Shown piece by piece: positions 2,880 through 57,085 of a DNA stretch of 63,790 nucleotides. The position numbers and the translations under genes were made by a program. Position 1 is the first letter of the stretch, and each line of letters opens with the position of its first letter. The notes beneath the pieces were generated by a model. The model saw nothing but the letters and a program-made list of their open reading frames with translations, did no database searches and had not been told where the DNA came from. Location: positions 1 through 63,790 of IMG/VR virus record IMGVR_UViG_3300036852_000142; one strand, given 5' to 3'. This DNA comes from a virus.

Positions 2880-2915
2880 CGAGCAGTCGTAAAACCGAAG
2901 GAGAGGTGAATGATG
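2863..2915 (+). repeat. Linker repeat, copy 1 (carries ribosome-binding site)
   Basis: About 50 bp covering the end of one gene and the start region of the next (GAGCAGTCGTAAAACCGA, then GGAGAGGTGAATGATG) recurs at 3212-3294. Copy 2 differs by a few substitutions and about 28 extra bases in the middle. Both copies place a start codon at the same position. Confidence 0.75.
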
Positions 2916-3215
2916 ACTAAAGAGATGGATAACTTAAACATTGAGCTAGTCCATGTTGATGTAGAGCCATTTCATGGCGTTCATAAGAACGACTTAGTGT
3001 GTTGGCCCGGCCGTAGCAAAAACTGTGGAAGACCAAGGGAATGGGCTGTATTCCATGATGAAAATGAGGCGAAAGCCTCCTTCGACTATCTCACCTCCAT
3101 TTACATTGGAACGTGCTCTGAACACTTACCGCTGGCTTTACACTATCACCCAACTGCGTTGAATTACATACGACCATATCCCGGCCATATCCCTACCACT
3201 CAAAAGGACGTTTGA
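2910..3215 (+). CDS. Hypothetical phage protein
   Basis: 101 residues from tandem ATGs at 2910/2913, preceded by GAAGGAGAGGTGA, a strong ribosome-binding site. The sequence is His/Tyr-rich with two Cys and ends in a basic tail. No motif assigned. It is the gene flanked by the two linker repeats (2863-2915 and 3212-3294), so it looks like an exchangeable cassette. Confidence 0.65.
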   Translation: MMTKEMDNLNIELVHVDVEPFHGVHKNDLVCWPGRSKNCGRPREWAVFHDENEAKASFDYLTSIYIGTCSEHLPLALHYHPTALNYIRPYPGHIPTTQKDV

Positions 3216-3701: not shown

Positions 3702-3706
3702 AAATC

Positions 3707-3727
3707 TCTCCGCTCGCACGGCGGAGA
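3707..3727 (+). other. Intergenic hairpin, CTCCG/CGGAG type
   Basis: A perfect 7-bp inverted repeat (TCTCCGC, 7-nt loop, GCGGAGA) lies six bases after the stop of the 78-aa gene. There is no following T-run, so it is not a standard terminator. Hairpins with the same CTCCG..CGGAG stem recur at 4438-4460, 44513-44529 and 54584-54600, all outside genes. Confidence 0.6.
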
Positions 3728-3792
3728 TAGGGAGGAAGCTTGCGGCGGTCATTGAGGGTGGTAGCCGTCAACGGTGCATGGGCGTTGGATGA

Positions 3793-4077
3793 TTGAGCAG
3801 TACAACGAATGTCCAGCCAAGCGACCTGAGCCGCCGCAGTTCTCTCTTCTCTTTTGAAGGAATGGGAAAGGAAGCGATGAGAAATTATCTATTAGCCTTT
3901 GGCGGCGTGTTTTTTACCGTGTTATCTGCGAGTACGTCGATAAGTATCGTGCTCAAGAATTACGGACTTTATGAGGACGTCTCAAGGCCCGTATTGGCAT
4001 TGCTGTGCTTTGTTTGGATGCTTTTGGCAGCGTTGTGTTTCGGTTCGCTGACCACCGCGCAGCAGAGGAAGGAGTAA
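3793..4077 (+). CDS. Two-span membrane protein
   Basis: The frame opens at TTG 3793, but ATG 3877 (after AAAGGAAGCG) or ATG 3862 is a better start, giving 66-71 residues. Two hydrophobic segments are separated by a short loop (LKNYGLYEDVSRP), and the C-terminus is basic. Candidate superinfection or membrane-stress protein; no family assigned. Confidence 0.6.
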   Translation: MSSTTNVQPSDLSRRSSLFSFEGMGKEAMRNYLLAFGGVFFTVLSASTSISIVLKNYGLYEDVSRPVLALLCFVWMLLAALCFGSLTTAQQRKE

Positions 4078-4089
4078 GAGTATTTTGAT

Positions 4090-5305: not shown

Positions 5306-5339
5306 TAATCGGGCTGTTGGAAGCGATGAAAGGAAAGTA

Positions 5340-5663
5340 ATGTCCACCAATGAAGAAGATAGAAAGAAGGCCGCAGAGATTCTGCTTGCCAATAATTTGC
5401 CAACACGATTTACGGAACGGCATGTCTCCGCACGCAATAAACAATTAGCTGAGGACATCGCCGCTGCCCTTTCAGAAGCCCGCAGCCAGCAACGAGAGGT
5501 AGGTAGACAAATGTTAGCCGCTGAATTATTGGGTCATCTGGATCGTACAACCAGCACCACGGCGGCGTTCCATTTAATCAAGAGTCTTTGTCAGGTTGAG
5601 TTGGGACTTGAACCGAATTCGTTAGGAGTGGTGATTGAAGAAGAAGCGCACAACAACGGTTGA
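5340..5663 (+). CDS. Hypothetical helical phage protein
   Basis: ATG 5340 behind GAAAGGAAAGTA is preferred over the upstream ATG 5235. 107 residues, Ala/Glu/Arg-rich, predicted mostly helical, with an acidic C-terminus. It overlaps the next gene by 29 bases. No family recognised. Confidence 0.55.
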   Translation: MSTNEEDRKKAAEILLANNLPTRFTERHVSARNKQLAEDIAAALSEARSQQREVGRQMLAAELLGHLDRTTSTTAAFHLIKSLCQVELGLEPNSLGVVIEEEAHNNG

Positions 5664-27357: not shown

Positions 27358-28779
27358 TTACCAGTTTAGTGAACGACCTTCTCTGGCTTCTGAAGCCTGA
27401 TAAGCCATCGCGCCAGCCACAAACGAATCGGGTGGATGCCCAGACCCTCCTAAATCATCATTAGTACAATATCGGTGCTCGCCTTCGCAGTAACGGATCT
27501 TTGGCGATACGATCGATCCGTTCTCAATTGCGGCAATATAGTCTGTAAACACGTCAGCGCGAACCTGCCCAACTAAGACAATGCCCTCGGCCTTTACAGT
27601 TAGATAGTCATCTACTACGTTCCCGATTCCTGTCTTATCGTGACATGCCCTACCACCATATCGTTCAACCCGTTCATTGAATTTTTTAATCATCATCGGC
27701 CAAGCCATGCGCCCTAACCTGATCCAAGAAACGCGCTTCATTGGGCGACAGTCAATCCGCCAAGTATCAATAATCGTCCAGTCTTTTTCTTTTGCCCAAT
27801 CACAGCCGTGAGCATACTTTGCGCCTTGGACAGGAACTTCTATCTCAACTTCCCGCCCTGCTTCACCTGTATACTCACCTAGATTCTTTTGAAAACATGC
27901 ATCGACCTTTTCAGGAAGTATCGCCCTTCCTTCCGGACTGGGCTCCTGAAGATCATATTCAGCCTGCCACATTGAGGCGGTCACTTCACCGCGCTTGGAT
28001 TCGATTTCGCTTTGTGTTAGCCATCCATCAGGTTCCGCACTTGTTTCCTTCCAGCACCATTCCTGCACTGGCCATCCGTTCTCGCTAGCTCGCTTTAATA
28101 CTTCCGTAAACGTTGCATCTGCATAATGGTGGGTGGAACTCAATACTGTCTGTTTCGGCACCGTTAGAGTTGACATCGGTTGCCCCATCGCGGCATCGAG
28201 AATTTCCAGATCCATTTCGTCAACCTCATCGCAGCGAAGCCTGGAAGGGTGCGGACCGCGAGCTGACTTGCTCGAAGCCATAAGTGCGGTAACAATCCCA
28301 CCACCGCGATAGCGGGTTCTGCGTTGAATATTTTCTTCACCGCTTGACCACTTCTGTAAGTATTCGAGAACGCGAGTTGACTGCTCTCCAGAGCCACCAA
28401 GAATTGTTACCTCAGCACCGAGCGTGTCGGCTTCGCAGTGGCCTAATAGAGCTAACAGATAAGTCTTGCCGCCAAAGCCCCGGCTGGCCTTCCATATCGT
28501 TACTCCATGGCGCGCAAAGTACGCGTCTGCGAACGCACGGAATGGCGTTGTGTGGTTTGGACAAACTTGGTTATCAGGAATTCGCAGTCCAAAGGTATTA
28601 AAGAGAAAGGCCTTTAATTCAGCATCATTATGTGGCCCTTGTTGGGCTGCGCGGACTGGCTCAATGTCCGTTGGATTCAGCCAATTGGCGACTTCCTGAA
28701 CCAACGAGTCTTGTAAATTCGCTTGAGGCAGAGGCGAAGATGGAATTTCTAAGGGTCGTGTCTGTGACATGCTTCTCAA
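27358..28779 (-). CDS. terL: Terminase large subunit
   Basis: 473 residues. Walker A-like SRGFGGKT at about 99-106, Walker B LRCDEVDE with Asp184-Glu185, and nuclease acidic residues in GCDWAKEKDW, CHDKTGIG and HPPDSFVAG. It packages DNA with the small subunit. The first Met lies 119 bases inside the small-subunit gene in another frame; a TTG at 28704 would shorten but not remove the overlap. Confidence 0.93.
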   Translation of the reverse strand: MRSMSQTRPLEIPSSPLPQANLQDSLVQEVANWLNPTDIEPVRAAQQGPHNDAELKAFLFNTFGLRIPDNQVCPNHTTPFRAFADAYFARHGVTIWKASRGFGGKTYLLALLGHCEADTLGAEVTILGGSGEQSTRVLEYLQKWSSGEENIQRRTRYRGGGIVTALMASSKSARGPHPSRLRCDEVDEMDLEILDAAMGQPMSTLTVPKQTVLSSTHHYADATFTEVLKRASENGWPVQEWCWKETSAEPDGWLTQSEIESKRGEVTASMWQAEYDLQEPSPEGRAILPEKVDACFQKNLGEYTGEAGREVEIEVPVQGAKYAHGCDWAKEKDWTIIDTWRIDCRPMKRVSWIRLGRMAWPMMIKKFNERVERYGGRACHDKTGIGNVVDDYLTVKAEGIVLVGQVRADVFTDYIAAIENGSIVSPKIRYCEGEHRYCTNDDLGGSGHPPDSFVAGAMAYQASEAREGRSLNW

Positions 28780-52504: not shown

Positions 52505-53272
52505 TTAAAAGAAATCAACTTCATGGCATTCTTGTAGTCGTGTCATTATCGAATTGCCCCAGATTTCATCTATGCGACCCCAATGAGTGCGCAGTGCCTC
52601 AGCGGAAAAGTTGCTCGTCACGACAATCTGGTGCTGAAATGAGCGCGCGGCATCTATCACGTTGAAAAGTTGTTCCGAAGCAAACTCACTTGGACGCGCT
52701 TTCTCAAACTCGTCAAGAAATAACAACCAAGGCTTGCTAGATTTTCGTAACTCATCGGCAGTTACTCGCGGTGCTTTTAATGTCTCGCCTTCTGGTACGC
52801 CAACTTCAACACGCCGAAAATCAGCAAGTAGATCGCGCACCGTACACGCTACAACTGGGCGCCGCTGGGATACGGCATAACGATAAAGCGCCCACGCGAT
52901 ATGACTTTTGCCAGTTCCGTTCTTACCAACAAACAGATATGAGTCATTAGGATTGGCTCGAATAAACGTAATCGCGGCTGCTTGCCCTGGATGTAAATCA
53001 GCGCGTGGACTCAATCGGGATAGTCTTGGGTTATTAAATACCGGCGGAATGATTGCGAGCTGCGCTTGTGCCATTCTGCGTTTAACACATTTACAGTTTC
53101 GCGCCATGATCACCACACCATCGCGTCTACTGCGAACCGGCTTGCCGTCTGCGATAAGTCGAACTCCAACCCCAAGACAACGCCAGCACTTAGCAGATTT
53201 TGGACTTTGGTTCGAACTTGAAATCGCTTTTTTGAGGATTTCCGTTTCGAGTGTTTTGCTTATGATTTCCAT
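52505..53272 (-). CDS. DnaC/IstB-like helicase loader ATPase
   Basis: 255 residues. N-terminal zinc residues (CWRC about 29-32, CKC about 60-62), Walker A GKNGTGKSH (about 116-124), Walker B LLFLDEFEK and sensor VVTSNFS. Loads the replicative helicase at the origin; analogous to lambda P. It begins 83 bases inside the initiator gene in another frame. Confidence 0.9.
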   Translation of the reverse strand: MEIISKTLETEILKKAISSSNQSPKSAKCWRCLGVGVRLIADGKPVRSRRDGVVIMARNCKCVKRRMAQAQLAIIPPVFNNPRLSRLSPRADLHPGQAAAITFIRANPNDSYLFVGKNGTGKSHIAWALYRYAVSQRRPVVACTVRDLLADFRRVEVGVPEGETLKAPRVTADELRKSSKPWLLFLDEFEKARPSEFASEQLFNVIDAARSFQHQIVVTSNFSAEALRTHWGRIDEIWGNSIMTRLQECHEVDFF

Positions 53273-54002
53273 TTCCGTTTCTTGATAGCCATGATCCGAT
53301 CTCGCTTTTAACAGACTGCCACGTAACCCGCGCCCGCCACTTGTCTTTTAGAAGGTCGCTATAGCAAGCCTCGCAGACTTCTGGTTTGTAGGTAGCAAGA
53401 AGCCAGTTAATCGCCGCGCCTTGCGCTTTGGGATCGGGGATTGGACCAGCAATGTGCTGATTGTGAAAATCCATAAGCCGCGAATGCGGCGATGGTGTTT
53501 TTAGTTCTTCTTCTCTTAGTTCTTCTTCTACGTTATTCTTTATTTCCACAGTGGAAATTGGTTTGGAACTTGGATCAACTTCCACTGGAACTTGGTTTTG
53601 TCCCTCAACTTCCACACTGGAAGGCGCAACTTCCACTGTGGAACTTGTAAAGCGATCCGTATTGATCTTCCAAATATCAGTGATTGTGATTTCTTGAAAC
53701 GGCTTTCCGCCACGCGGGTTTGTGACTTCTCTGGTTCGGATTAAGGGCCGATTTCCTAATTCTAGGCGTTTAGCTTCCAAGGCACTTTTCGTTCTACTGA
53801 CTGTTCCCACACCCATGCCCGTTTCGCGGGCAAGAGTCGCCGTGGATTTGCGGCATTTACCATTCGCAGTTGCGCCGGCAGCGCGTTTGAGATGTGCGTA
53901 GAGCACTAATTCCAACGGCTTCAATCCAATTTCAAAAACAATGTTCGGTATCTGTGTCCAGTATTGTCGGGCGTCACCCTCGTCAGTTACTTCGTGCCTC
54001 AT
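53190..54002 (-). CDS. Replication initiator (lambda O-like, HTH_36 type)
   Basis: 270 residues. N-terminal winged-helix domain (LVLYAHLKRAAG; TLARETGMGVGTVSRTKSALE) is that of phage initiators; a linker encoded by the iterons (Val/Glu-rich) separates it from a C-terminal loader-contact domain. The gene holds its own origin-like repeats. Overlap with the DnaC-like loader is as in other O-P pairs. Confidence 0.82.
   Translation of the reverse strand: MRHEVTDEGDARQYWTQIPNIVFEIGLKPLELVLYAHLKRAAGATANGKCRKSTATLARETGMGVGTVSRTKSALEAKRLELGNRPLIRTREVTNPRGGKPFQEITITDIWKINTDRFTSSTVEVAPSSVEVEGQNQVPVEVDPSSKPISTVEIKNNVEEELREEELKTPSPHSRLMDFHNQHIAGPIPDPKAQGAAINWLLATYKPEVCEACYSDLLKDKWRARVTWQSVKSEIGSWLSRNGNGNHKQNTRNGNPQKSDFKFEPKSKIC
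53500..53643. other. Putative replication origin: iterons plus A/T-biased repeat
   Basis: Inside the initiator gene are four copies of TTCCAC-(0 to 2 bases)-TGGAA-type sequence: 53543-53557, 53580-53590, 53610-53622 and 53631-53643, several with flanking CAACT and ACTTG. Beside them a TAGTTCTTCTTCT direct repeat (about 53503-53535) makes a strongly strand-biased A/T-rich stretch. This is the layout of lambda ori within O. Confidence 0.65.
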
Positions 54003-54054
54003 GTAAACGAAAAGCCCTCAACTTTCGAGACGCTAGAGCGTTAGCAAGGACTCC

Positions 54055-54115
54055 GCATAGTGGTACGAAGTAGCTGCCAGCGCCCCGAAGGTTCAAGGCT
54101 CTGTCTCCACTATGC
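54055..54115. other. 9-bp inverted repeat with 43-base loop
   Basis: GCATAGTGG (54055-54063) and CCACTATGC (54107-54115) are perfect complements in the 54003-54204 gap upstream of the initiator gene. A 24-codon frame (ATG 54167 on minus, GAG-poor site) ends at the first arm. Together they resemble a leader/attenuator, but this is speculative. Confidence 0.4.
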
Positions 54116-54204
54116 TATACGCCGGTTGCTTGCCGTCGCCCGCATCGCGGGATTTATTAACCACCATCACACTATCTCAACTCTCAGATTTAAGTTTTTA
54201 GCTG

Positions 54205-54471
54205 TCACGTTGCTGTAGGCCAATACCGATTTAGTGGCTCAGGCCATTCTCCGTCGTATGTTCCGAACTCGATTTGCGAATACATCACAACGTCTAGGCC
54301 AAGTTGTTTTGCTTCATCCCGCTGGCTCACGTTTCGACTCAGACGATCCGCACACAGTGCCTTTCCTATATTAATTTTAAGTAATCGCTGGCCATTGATT
54401 CGGCCTGAGCCTTTACAAGTCGAGCACTTGAAATCGCCAGTCCGACAACCAGAAGGCCCGCAAACACTCAA
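54205..54471 (-). CDS. Zinc + Cro/CI-like helix-turn-helix regulator (TTG start)
   Basis: 88 residues. CGPSGC..CSTCKGSGR is a likely zinc element, followed by a Cro/CI-type helix-turn-helix (RLSRNVSQRDEAKQLGLDVVMYSQIEFG). The start is TTG 54471; the strongest ribosome-binding site, GGAGG at 54482-54486, instead fits ATG 54478 in another frame, which encodes only 21 residues. Candidate repressor or Cro. Confidence 0.6.
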   Translation of the reverse strand: MSVCGPSGCRTGDFKCSTCKGSGRINGQRLLKINIGKALCADRLSRNVSQRDEAKQLGLDVVMYSQIEFGTYDGEWPEPLNRYWPTAT

Positions 54472-55347
54472 TAAGCATTCAACCTCCGGTGTCTTTCGGG
54501 ATAACGATCTGGGAAAGCCAGGATGCTTTGCCCCCTCGTAAAACTAAAAATGCTTTTCAAGAGTGAAATCCTTGAATCGCCGTCTCCGACTTTCACGGAG
54601 CAGCGCCAAGTACTAAGTCCCCGTCTCATCGGACGGTCGAGACACACGCTTTCGCGTCAGCGACTCAGGATTGAATTGCGCGGGGCCGAATTGGATACCG
54701 ACCTAGAGGAGCCTTGTACGGTAAACTCCGTCAGGGTTTTGCAAAACCCACGGCTGCTCGTCCAATATCTGACCTGCTTACGGGGCTTGGCCCAGCCTCG
54801 GAGTGCGAACAGCGTTTTCTCCGCATGATGCATCATGCCTGCCCGCGCAATTACGACGAGCCTTTGAGCGACCGTCTTTCAGATCGCCTTATCTCCCGTC
54901 GCAAACTTTTCAAATATCAAGCTGGCCGTTTCTCTCCCACGGCCAAAGTCACACCACTTGCAGGGCCAGTCTCGGTGTCCAAAACGGGGTTTCACCGTTC
55001 ACCCGAGCTTGGTTCTTCCCTGTCTCCGCGAGGTGTCGCGCGACCCGCTTGCGCTTTGGCACGACCATCTTTCAGACCGCGCTACTTGCCGCCGCGCTAT
55101 CGTTAGCACCGGAGTTTCGCTTGCTCCGGTAGCGCCGATTCTTACGCCTTATCGGAGGCCCGCAGTCAGCCTTACGGCCCAGCATGTTGCCCGTTGGTCT
55201 GCGACACCATGATTCGCCGTTTAGTAACACACGGCGAAACTCAAAGAACTCTTTTCAAGTAGGCGGGAACCTTTTAGCCCTCCCGAACCTCTAGATTCCC
55301 GCCCTCTGCCCGATTGCTGTTGCCATAGAATTAGCAATCGAGAGAAA
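54472..55347 (-). ncRNA. Large hairpin-rich non-coding region (candidate giant structured RNA)
   Basis: 876 bp with no credible gene in an otherwise tightly packed operon. Strong stems include CGATTGCT..AGCAATCG (55311-55340), GGCGGGAA..TTCCCGCC (55262-55303), TTCGCCGT..ACGGCGAA (55212-55237), ACCGGAG..CTCCGGT (55108-55130), TGGCCGT..ACGGCCA (54923-54945), the palindromes GCATGATGCATCATGC and GGGTTTTGCAAAACCC, CTCCG..CGGAG and ACGC-GAAA-GCGT. Loops are purine-rich on the minus strand (GAAA, GGGAGAGAA, CAAGCGAAA), matching the operon direction. CGACCRTCTTTCAGAYCGC occurs twice. Size recalls GOLLD/ROOL-type phage RNAs, but no sequence match is claimed. Confidence 0.55.
54582..54611 (-). repeat. 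30-nt hairpin repeat, copy 2
   Basis: See the copy at 44511-44540. It is the most 3' of the hairpins on the minus strand in the large non-coding region. Confidence 0.65.
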
Positions 55348-55815
55348 CTAACTCTTTTCAACTGAGACGTAAGGAGCGCGATCCTTCGTTTTCATTGCCT
55401 CACGAAGGATCTGTTTCGCCGTCTCCGTCCGTTCGCTACTTGATACCGTATTCAAGAAGCCGTTTAAGTTTCGCTTCTTTGCGGTAAACTTGATCTCAGT
55501 CTTAAATAGTTCGTCAAACACTTCTTTGCCCAATAACTCCGCGGCTGTGAACATCTGCTCGTTGTCAAATTCGTAGTCGATCCCAAACTCGACTTTCAGC
55601 CGTATGCCGCCAGTGCTTTCCAGGTGAACCGTCTTCTGTGTCCCTTTGTTTTCAAACGCGATGCCGGCCAGTTGTAAGCCAATCTCCCTTCTCTCTGTCG
55701 CCTGCTCTTTTACCTGCCTATCAAGTTGAGCGAACCGCTTAATCAGATCGTCTTGACTTAGGCCAGCAACCGCCGACTTCGGGGCGTCCGTGTCCATTGC
55801 TTCTGCGAATGTCAT
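55348..55815 (-). CDS. Conserved early protein next to annealing-type gene
   Basis: 155 residues from ATG 55815 (GGAGGGG site). A coiled helix (DDLIKRFAQLDRQVKEQATERRE) is followed by a conserved GIDYEFDNEQMFTAAELLGKE and IKFTAKKRNLNGFLN. Frequently paired with the protein encoded upstream; function unknown. Confidence 0.65.
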   Translation of the reverse strand: MTFAEAMDTDAPKSAVAGLSQDDLIKRFAQLDRQVKEQATERREIGLQLAGIAFENKGTQKTVHLESTGGIRLKVEFGIDYEFDNEQMFTAAELLGKEVFDELFKTEIKFTAKKRNLNGFLNTVSSSERTETAKQILREAMKTKDRAPYVSVEKS

Positions 55816-55829
55816 GTGATGCCCCTCCC

Positions 55830-56936
55830 TCAAAATGGAATACTTACATCACGATCGATTGAGTCGAGCTCGCTGATACTTAGTTCCTCAAGCGGCTTCA
55901 GCCCCTTCTCATCCAGATACGCTTGCAGGTGCTTATCAGAGTCGAAGTTTGTTTTGATTGATTTGATAACACCTGCCTTCCTGCTCCCAGATTTGAGGTT
56001 GTCAACACGCTCGCTTAGGAGTTTCAGCAGATCGCTAACCTGTCCATCGTCTAGCCCGTCAACATCGGCAACGCCTTCAAAGTTCTGTGCCACAAAAGCG
56101 TTTGCGGTTTTCTGTGTCCACTTAGGTTGATCGCCCAGCTCATTAAGCAATTTGAACGCATCCGCAACTGACTGAATAAGAGTCTTGCGAACTTTATCTA
56201 TCTTGGCGCGCGGCGCCGACTGCTTGCTAGTTACTTTCGCCTCTGTCTTTGTCTCTACGGGCTTTTCACCATTTGCGCTCGCTGTAATGTCCGTGAAGTC
56301 TTCAAGATCCTGGGTAAAGAATTCCGAGGCGTTGACGGCCAAGAGCGTAGCCGCGATCAAGGCTCGTTTTTGAGCCATCTTCTGCATGGTGTTGACTTGA
56401 TCCGCGATGTCAGGATTCGGAACCCGTTCAACCACCTGTGATGTAATTCGTTCGTCGGTGTCGTGAAACTTTGCCCCACAGCCATTCTTTTTTGTCCAGC
56501 ACAGCCATCCCCCGCCATATTCCTCTTTGCCCTTGATTACAGAGCCTTCTACGCCGCAGCTAGGGCATTTCCGCTCACCTTTGCGCCAGCGATATTTCGT
56601 CTCGTGACTGTTGCACGATCCGTCCGCCTCAGCAACTAATAGATCGCCGCGATAAAGAGAGCAGCGATAGAGATAATTGAAAAACGGTCGATCCCATTCT
56701 TCTGTGTGATCAATGAGCTGAAACCGCTTGCTTAAGCCGAATAAGGTGCAAAGTTTCTCTGCTCCTGGCTTGAGTAAAGTATTTTTTTCTGTGCCTGGAA
56801 TCTTGCCAAAGTCCGTCCCTTCGTTCATCAATTCCTGAACGTAAGTAACGATTGTTCGATAACGCTGTGTTGCCGTGGCAATATCCATTATCGGCATCAA
56901 TGCGTCGGATTCTCTTACTGTGATTGCTTCTGTCAT
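55830..56936 (-). CDS. Recombination-region protein with zinc motif
   Basis: 368 residues from ATG 56936 (AAGGAG). GTDFGKIPGTEKNTLLKPGAEKL, CPSCGVEGSV, GGGWLCWTKKNGCGAKF and NPDIADQVNTMQKMAQKRALI mark a conserved phage early family seen next to RecT-type annealing genes. A DNA recombination or repair role is inferred from company, not from catalytic residues. Confidence 0.65.
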   Translation of the reverse strand: MTEAITVRESDALMPIMDIATATQRYRTIVTYVQELMNEGTDFGKIPGTEKNTLLKPGAEKLCTLFGLSKRFQLIDHTEEWDRPFFNYLYRCSLYRGDLLVAEADGSCNSHETKYRWRKGERKCPSCGVEGSVIKGKEEYGGGWLCWTKKNGCGAKFHDTDERITSQVVERVPNPDIADQVNTMQKMAQKRALIAATLLAVNASEFFTQDLEDFTDITASANGEKPVETKTEAKVTSKQSAPRAKIDKVRKTLIQSVADAFKLLNELGDQPKWTQKTANAFVAQNFEGVADVDGLDDGQVSDLLKLLSERVDNLKSGSRKAGVIKSIKTNFDSDKHLQAYLDEKGLKPLEELSISELDSIDRDVSIPF

Positions 56937-56955
56937 CTGTTTTCTCCTTGTGAAT

Positions 56956-57085
56956 TGCCTCAATCGCGTGGTTTTAGCTCTGAGGCATTGTTACTTGGAA
57001 TTAACTTTCAACTTTTGACTGTCGGCGCCTTGCGCCGCTTTCTCGATCCGTGGAAAAAATTCATTTTATTAAGACGCCGGACAGT
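56956..57085. other. Gap with two long-range stems
   Basis: The 56937-57107 gap has no gene. TGCCTCA..TGAGGCA (56956-56987), GGCGC-CTT-GCGCC (57024-57036) and an interrupted long-range stem ACTGTCGGCG/CGCCGGACAGT (57018-57085) are present. Structured leader of the recombination genes is possible. Confidence 0.4.

What the first reader, a model, noticed from the sequence alone, without database searches (positions are those of the whole stretch)
54472..55347. An 876-bp non-coding, hairpin-dense region in a packed operon: candidate giant phage RNA
Seen: no believable gene, at least nine strong stems (several perfect 8-bp), two perfect 16-bp palindromes and an internal 19-bp repeat (CGACCRTCTTTCAGAYCGC, 54870 and 55062). 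Loops are purine-rich on the minus strand, the transcription direction. Known: some phages carry ornate RNAs of this size (GOLLD, ROOL). Inference: a structured RNA of a known or new class expressed in the early-left operon.
Basis: partly seen in the sequence, partly recalled or inferred. Interest (0 to 1): 0.85.

Follow-up and report, generated by a model that had tools for sequence, protein, structure and literature searches.

The report
New large structured phage RNA family
A soil-type phage carries, between its DNA-replication genes, an almost 900-letter stretch that makes no protein but has the marks of a large folded RNA; two related phages carry diverged versions of it and a third shares one hairpin, and it matches no RNA family in Rfam.

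Summary
Window 54472-55347 (minus strand) is non-coding in all six frames, folds better than every shuffle (z about -4) and better than 30 other 876-nt stretches of the phage. It holds the two longest perfect palindromes in 63.8 kb. Rfam 15 gives no match at gathering scores and only chance-level ones below, and the phage and plasmid collections have none.

Through terminase relatives and a conserved core I found diverged homologues in other IMG/VR phages: L059 1078-1690 (613 nt) and L096 2974-2462 (513 nt), with L056 (about 260 nt) sharing one hairpin. All are non-coding and fold significantly in the sense direction, less so on the other strand. They share 5'-UUGAMAAGUUUGCGCGG ... CCGCGCAAUUCAA-3', the arms of a long-range helix. 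L096 lies at the same place: before a small gene, a second structured leader and the replication gene O (69% identical).

Best reading: an undescribed family of large structured phage RNAs in an early replication operon, resembling GOLLD and ROOL only in kind. Transcription, ends and function are untested. An operon-level cis role is the main rival.

The parts
54472..55347 (-). large structured non-coding RNA region (transcript ends unknown; the given borders are only the ORF borders)
   Evidence: non-coding; fold z -4.0 minus, -2.3 plus; most over-stable of 31 stretches
54897..54927 (-). conserved core, 5' part: GGCCAGCUUGAUAUUUGAAAAGUUUGCGACGGG
   Evidence: shared with L059 1233-1264 and L096 2963-2932 (profile search)
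54843..54850 (-). core long-range helix, 5' arm UUGCGCGG
   Evidence: same helix in L059 (UUGCGCGG/CCGCGCAA, p 0.93) and L096 (UGCGCGGCC/GGUCGCGCA, p 0.96); forcing it in the window costs 0.3 kcal/mol
54671..54683 (-). core long-range helix, 3' arm CCGCGCAA followed by UUCAA (pairs with UUGAA at 54909-54913)
   Evidence: 13 nt identical with L059; L096 has UCGCGCA-UUCAA
54923..54945 (-). hairpin UGGCCGUGGGAGAGAAACGGCCA next to the core
   Evidence: 28-nt, 93% match in a non-coding stretch of L056; pair probability 0.97
   Evidence: aligned with module B; 15 of 15 pairs form
54851..54904 (-). module B: outer helix UUGCGACGGG/CUCGUCGUAA plus hairpin with loop UGAAAGAC (second copy)
   Evidence: 14 of 15 pairs form; 3 two-sided and 4 one-sided changes against A; predicted with p 0.90-0.95
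54734..54749 (.). perfect 16-bp palindrome GGGTTTTGCAAAACCC; as RNA a 6-bp hairpin with loop UGCA
54823..54838 (.). perfect 16-bp palindrome GCATGATGCATCATGC; as RNA a 6-bp hairpin with loop UGCA
55251..55258 (-). UUGAAAAG motif; other copies at 55354-55361, 54906-54913, 54553-54560
   Evidence: 4 of the 11 minus-strand copies in the window lie in about 0.9 kb
54003..54204 (-). second structured non-coding element: leader of the replication gene O
   Evidence: homologous to L096 2185-2002, many kept pairs with two-sided changes, fold z -2.4 and -3.6
54205..54471 (-). 88-aa small zinc-ribbon-like ORF (CxxC motifs) after the RNA
   Evidence: (weak but positive coding score)
53190..54002 (-). replication initiation / DnaD-like protein ('O')
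   Evidence: phrog_270, phrog_186; 69% identical to L096 homologue over 193 aa
52505..53272 (-). DnaC-like helicase loader
   Evidence: phrog_50, AAA/IstB
55348..55833 (-). 161-aa protein before the RNA (phrog_2480; weak DUF7173)
   Evidence: intact over nearly its whole profile, so not an exon split by an intron
55830..56963 (-). 377-aa protein, phrog_10048 (unknown function; single-strand annealing type suspected by its place only)

Best explanation
The stretch encodes a large, multi-domain structured RNA, read from the minus strand as part of the early replication operon. It belongs to a previously undescribed, fast-diverging family found in related soil phages. Shown by sequence: it is non-coding; it folds beyond chance in the operon's sense direction; two diverged relatives share a core helix (5'-UUGAMAAGUUUGCGCGG...CCGCGCAAUUCAA-3'), one of them at the same place before O; and an internal two-helix module is duplicated with compensating changes. 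Inferred: the RNA is a self-contained unit that works as a folded RNA, probably in trans or as a scaffold. It would be cut or protected out of the early transcript and built from a conserved core junction plus variable domains, including hairpins with self-complementary UGCA loops that could let copies pair with one another. The reason to prefer this to control of one neighbouring gene is that the genes on both sides of it are unrelated between the window and L096, although the RNA and the O gene keep their order.
For: Non-coding in all frames. Sense-strand fold z: window -4.0, L059 -3.4, L096 -3.3, L056 -3.6, each with 0 of 60 shuffles as good; opposite strands -2.3, -2.8, -1.5, -2.0. Shared core: 46-nt match E = 2e-4 plus an independent 13-nt identity in the same order and complementary to it in L059; 26-nt match L059/L096 with 2 mismatches. 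The pair after the 8-bp helix is G-C (window), U-G (L059), C-G (L096), read. Synteny with L096: ORF - RNA - small ORF - structured leader - O. Module A/B pairs: 15/15 and 14/15 kept, three two-sided changes, against 29-56% of cells when slid; on the plus strand only 11 and 12 pairs form. Neighbouring genes not conserved.
Against: Only three clear members, so no proper covariation test (R-scape style) is possible; control (a) is not extreme (63 of 500 shuffles), because two sequences carry little information. L096 was picked by an exact pattern, so its 19-nt identity is selected; only the flanking match, the 3' arm and the synteny are independent. Outside the core the relatives do not align. 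The MFE of the window prefers a rival long-range helix to module A (forcing everything costs 12.8 kcal/mol of 348). No promoter, terminator or transcript evidence. No trans function has been shown.
Confidence: 0.55

Rival explanations
1. Cis-acting operon RNA: the same structured RNA works within the early transcript, for example as a processive antitermination, anti-Rho or processing/stability element that lets RNA polymerase cross an untranslated stretch and sets expression of O and DnaC.
For: It lies within a same-strand operon just before the replication genes in the window and L096; a second structured leader with compensatory changes directly precedes O; nearly 900 untranslated bases in an operon would otherwise invite Rho termination (general knowledge); no terminator-like site in the RNA on the minus strand.
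Against: Size (up to 876 nt) is far above known phage antitermination RNAs such as put or EAR (own knowledge); flanking genes and distances to the next start codon are not conserved; in L059 the next genes are not O but other early genes, among them a sliding clamp.
Confidence: 0.28
2. A very divergent member of a known large phage RNA class (GOLLD or ROOL).
For: Phage location, size of 500-880 nt, many branched helices; GOLLD has a conserved 3' region and a divergent 5' region, and self-complementary kissing loops (PMC12286853).
Against: No Rfam match even at E<=10 with permissive filters on 1.6 kb, none at gathering score in the whole window or in L059, L056, L096; no tRNA nearby.
Confidence: 0.07
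3. A double-stranded DNA element, such as a replication origin or protein-binding region beside the replication genes, whose palindromes and repeats are binding sites.
For: Two perfect 16-bp palindromes and four TTGAAAAG copies beside O and DnaC; phage origins often lie near the initiator gene.
Against: It is more G+C-rich (0.55) than its surroundings, not A+T-rich; TTGAAAAG copies are irregularly spaced and occur once in L059 and not in L056; G-U pairs that fit only the minus strand; stronger fold on the sense strand in all four phages.
Confidence: 0.06
4. Decayed or functionless spacer whose fold is a by-product of high G+C and recent duplication.
For: Sequence outside the core is not conserved among the relatives.
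Against: Dinucleotide shuffles correct for G+C; a core kept in three phages at otherwise unalignable sequence; kept pairs in the duplicated module; phage genomes rarely keep 0.9 kb of dead sequence in an operon.
Confidence: 0.04

Closest known systems
GOLLD RNA (Rfam family; Kretsch et al. 2025, PMC12286853)
   Same: large (many over 800 nt) branched non-coding RNA in phages and prophages; conserved part plus divergent part; self-complementary loops used for self-assembly in GOLLD
   Different: no covariance-model match; no tRNA neighbourhood; lies inside an early replication operon
ROOL RNA (PMC12286853)
   Same: phage-borne, 500-700 nt class of size, many helices
   Different: no covariance-model match; no tRNA island; different conserved core
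OLE and raiA RNAs
   Same: large bacterial structured RNAs
   Different: no match in Rfam; chromosomal in bacteria rather than phage early operons (own knowledge)
Phage antitermination RNAs (put of HK022) and EAR
   Same: structured RNA acting within an operon transcript, would explain a long untranslated stretch
   Different: these are about 70-120 nt (own knowledge) and no Rfam match was found here
Group I and group II introns
   Same: hundreds of nt of folded RNA in phage genes
   Different: no Rfam match; neighbouring ORFs are not split halves of one protein

Membership tests
GOLLD / ROOL | match to the Rfam covariance model | tested here: not met
   whole window at gathering score: 0 matches; 53900-55500 at E<=10: only chance-level eukaryotic or archaeal families; relatives: 0
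GOLLD / ROOL | location in phage near tRNA genes | tested here: not met
   no tRNA in the window or in the relatives' stretches examined
GOLLD / ROOL | assembly into homo-oligomeric cages | not testable with these tools
   two hairpins with self-complementary UGCA loops are compatible but prove nothing
Large structured phage RNA (kind, not family) | no coding potential over several hundred nt | tested here: met
   relatives also lack fitting ORFs
Large structured phage RNA (kind, not family) | structure beyond chance, in the sense direction | tested here: met
Large structured phage RNA (kind, not family) | pairs kept by compensatory change across homologues | tested here: inconclusive
   kept pairs with two-sided changes in modules A/B and one varying pair in the core helix among three members; too few members for a statistical test
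Large structured phage RNA (kind, not family) | transcribed | not testable with these tools
   no RNA-seq available
Group I / group II intron | Rfam match and split host gene | tested here: not met
   flanking 161-aa protein matches nearly its whole family profile
tRNA or tmRNA | ARAGORN gene call | tested here: not met

The most novel reading that the evidence does not exclude
A new class of ornate phage RNA, unrelated to GOLLD and ROOL, with a conserved junction core and interchangeable domains. Self-complementary loops and duplicated T-loop-like modules would make it self-assemble or scaffold replication proteins during early infection.
Probability: 0.3. Interest if true: 0.85.

Novelty: new variant of a known kind. 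Interest (0 to 1): 0.62.

Why it matters
Only two classes of giant phage RNA (GOLLD, ROOL) are well described, and their functions are unknown. A third family that sits inside an early replication operon rather than beside tRNAs, and whose members range from about 500 to 900 nt around a small conserved core, would give a new comparison for what such RNAs do and would make their function testable through a defined operon.

Tried and rejected
Rfam with gathering and permissive thresholds: nothing credible. Direct DNA similarity in phages and plasmids: none. The repeat hairpin as a search pattern: 0 hits in viral contigs; 4 genome hits, all chance (two coding, rpoB, a terminator), in line with about 4 expected. 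Paired-repeat pattern: 13 viral hits, none related. Loop-only pattern: 7 hits, unrelated. Neighbour proteins as baits: no close relatives, two distant ones without the RNA; synteny with Myxococcus phage Mx4 limited to one protein and no RNA there. Core pattern: 14 hits, of which L091 is L059's own phage, L096 is new, and the rest are chance. A loose scan of all held loci for the core pair found no further member. Long 'gaps' in other relatives were mostly genes missed by the codon model. Considered a conserved short peptide over the core (I/M-F-E/D-K-F-A): stops directly precede it in L059 and L096 and frames end at once, so rejected. Group I/II intron rejected (no model match, no split gene). 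A whole-structure fold with modules A, B and core together is possible but 12.8 kcal/mol above the MFE, so no complete secondary structure is claimed.

Full report
What the sequence is. The window is a virus record of 63,790 bases, a temperate tailed phage by its integrase, terminase and tail genes. Around the finding all likely genes are on the minus strand: a 377-aa protein (phrog_10048), a 161-aa protein (phrog_2480), then 54472-55347, then an 88-aa zinc-ribbon-like ORF, a 202-bp gap, a replication initiation protein 'O' (phrog_270/186) and a DnaC-like loader.

Observation. The region is non-coding: with a codon model from 22 phage genes every ORF in it scores negative and the best local score is below the shuffle median, whereas the flanking genes score clearly positive (the 88-aa ORF only weakly). 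The two 16-bp palindromes are the longest in the window. The repeat extends to 43 nt at 72%. The fold is significant as a whole on the minus strand: z = -4.0, 0 of 60 shuffles, and the most extreme of 31 equal stretches. Counting simple hairpins is not by itself significant, and short windows mostly are not.

Homologues. Direct searches failed. The terminase found 16 related IMG/VR records, although it has no match among isolate phages. In two of these a long non-coding stretch held local matches to the RNA. L059 1078-1690 has a 46-nt match (72%, E = 2e-4) and, further on, 13 identical nt, in the same order; these two pieces contain the arms of an 8-bp helix, UUGCGCGG/CCGCGCAA. L056 shares a 28-nt hairpin (93%). 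A pattern made from the first piece gave 14 hits in viral contigs: most are chance, one is L059's phage again, and one, L096, extends the match (26 nt with 2 mismatches to L059). L096 proved to carry the same operon: an ORF ending in DEDIPF (an SSB-like tail), 513 non-coding nt, a 91-aa ORF, 185 non-coding nt, and an O protein 69% identical over 193 aa. Since the pattern knew nothing of genes, this synteny is independent support. L096 also has the 3' arm (GGUCGCGCA-UUCAA) 3' of the 5' arm and complementary to it, p = 0.96.

Structure. All four stretches fold better than all 60 shuffles in the sense direction (z -3.3 to -4.0) and less so on the other strand (-1.5 to -2.8). In the window, the core 5' arm is separated from UUGAAAAGU by an extra hairpin (module B), so the core there is a junction: UUGAA/UUCAA, module B, and UUGCGCGG/CCGCGCAA. 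Forcing the long helix costs 0.3 kcal/mol, and the three together 3.7 kcal/mol. The base pair following the 8-bp helix is G-C in the window, U-G in L059 and C-G in L096. Read on the plus strand only 11 and 12 pairs form, because the changes use G-U pairs that exist on the minus strand only. With two rows the shuffle control is not extreme (63 of 500), so this is good but not conclusive evidence. The MFE of the window prefers another partner for module A; I therefore claim helices, not a full secondary structure.

Second element. The 202 bp before O (54003-54204) are homologous to the leader in L096. A two-sequence fold gives 39 pairs, ten with changes on both sides, and the folds are significant (-2.4, -3.6). 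The operon thus carries two structured RNAs around one small gene.

How it works. Shown: non-coding, structured in the sense direction, related RNAs in other phages. Inferred: the genes immediately before and after the RNA are unrelated between the window and L096 and different again in L059, while the RNA keeps its core. That fits a self-contained RNA better than a switch for one neighbouring gene. The palindromic UGCA hairpins and the repeated UGAAAGAY loops are natural sites for RNA-RNA contacts, but this is speculation. A cis role at operon level, such as antitermination across an untranslated 0.9 kb, remains possible (0.28).

Comparison. GOLLD and ROOL are the nearest known kind (PMC12286853). 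The present family is not a member on the two features I could test (covariance model, tRNA neighbourhood). I found no paper in the held library that describes an RNA of this kind in a phage early replication operon; most subscription papers are not in that library.

Limits. Three clear members and one partial one; no covariation statistics; ends of the RNA unknown; no expression data; host unknown.

Noticed in passing
window 54003-54204 (minus) and L096 2185-2002 (minus): A second conserved structured element, the leader of the replication gene O, with compensatory pairs between the two phages and a conserved GUGAGGGCUUUUCGUUUAMAUGA-like stretch near the start codon.
   Followed up: partly
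L076 about 2900-3067 (minus), phage G006: A strongly folded non-coding stretch (z about -6.4) closed by a 15-bp perfect helix GCGACAGGUCUGCGA/UCGCAGACCUGUCGC, directly after an SSB-like gene (tail SDDDIPF) and before a metalloprotease-like ORF (HEMSH) and an O-like gene; same operon place as the window RNA but no shared sequence seen.
   Followed up: partly
L062 about 5330-5490 (minus), phage G008: Short structured stretch with a long near-perfect inverted repeat (GCGCAAGAGCAAGCGCG ... CGCGCTTGCTCTTGGCG) before a small cysteine-rich ORF.
   Followed up: no
L096 2689-2562 (minus): The 3' domain of the L096 RNA resembles a tRNA-like fold: 9-bp closing helix UUCCUGCGG/CCGCAGGAA with a T-arm-like hairpin GUAGG-UUUCGACU-CCUAC beside it; ARAGORN calls no tRNA.
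   Followed up: partly
window minus strand 54553-55361: TTGAAAAG occurs 4 times here out of 11 copies on the minus strand of the whole window; role unknown.
   Followed up: partly
window 3702-4089 (minus): Another non-coding stretch with a possibly significant minus-strand fold (z -4.3 with 12 shuffles, only -2.25 with 60).
   Followed up: partly
window 27358-28779 (minus): The terminase has no match among 50,697 isolate phage records but 16 relatives in IMG/VR: an uncultured phage group with no isolate.
   Followed up: partly
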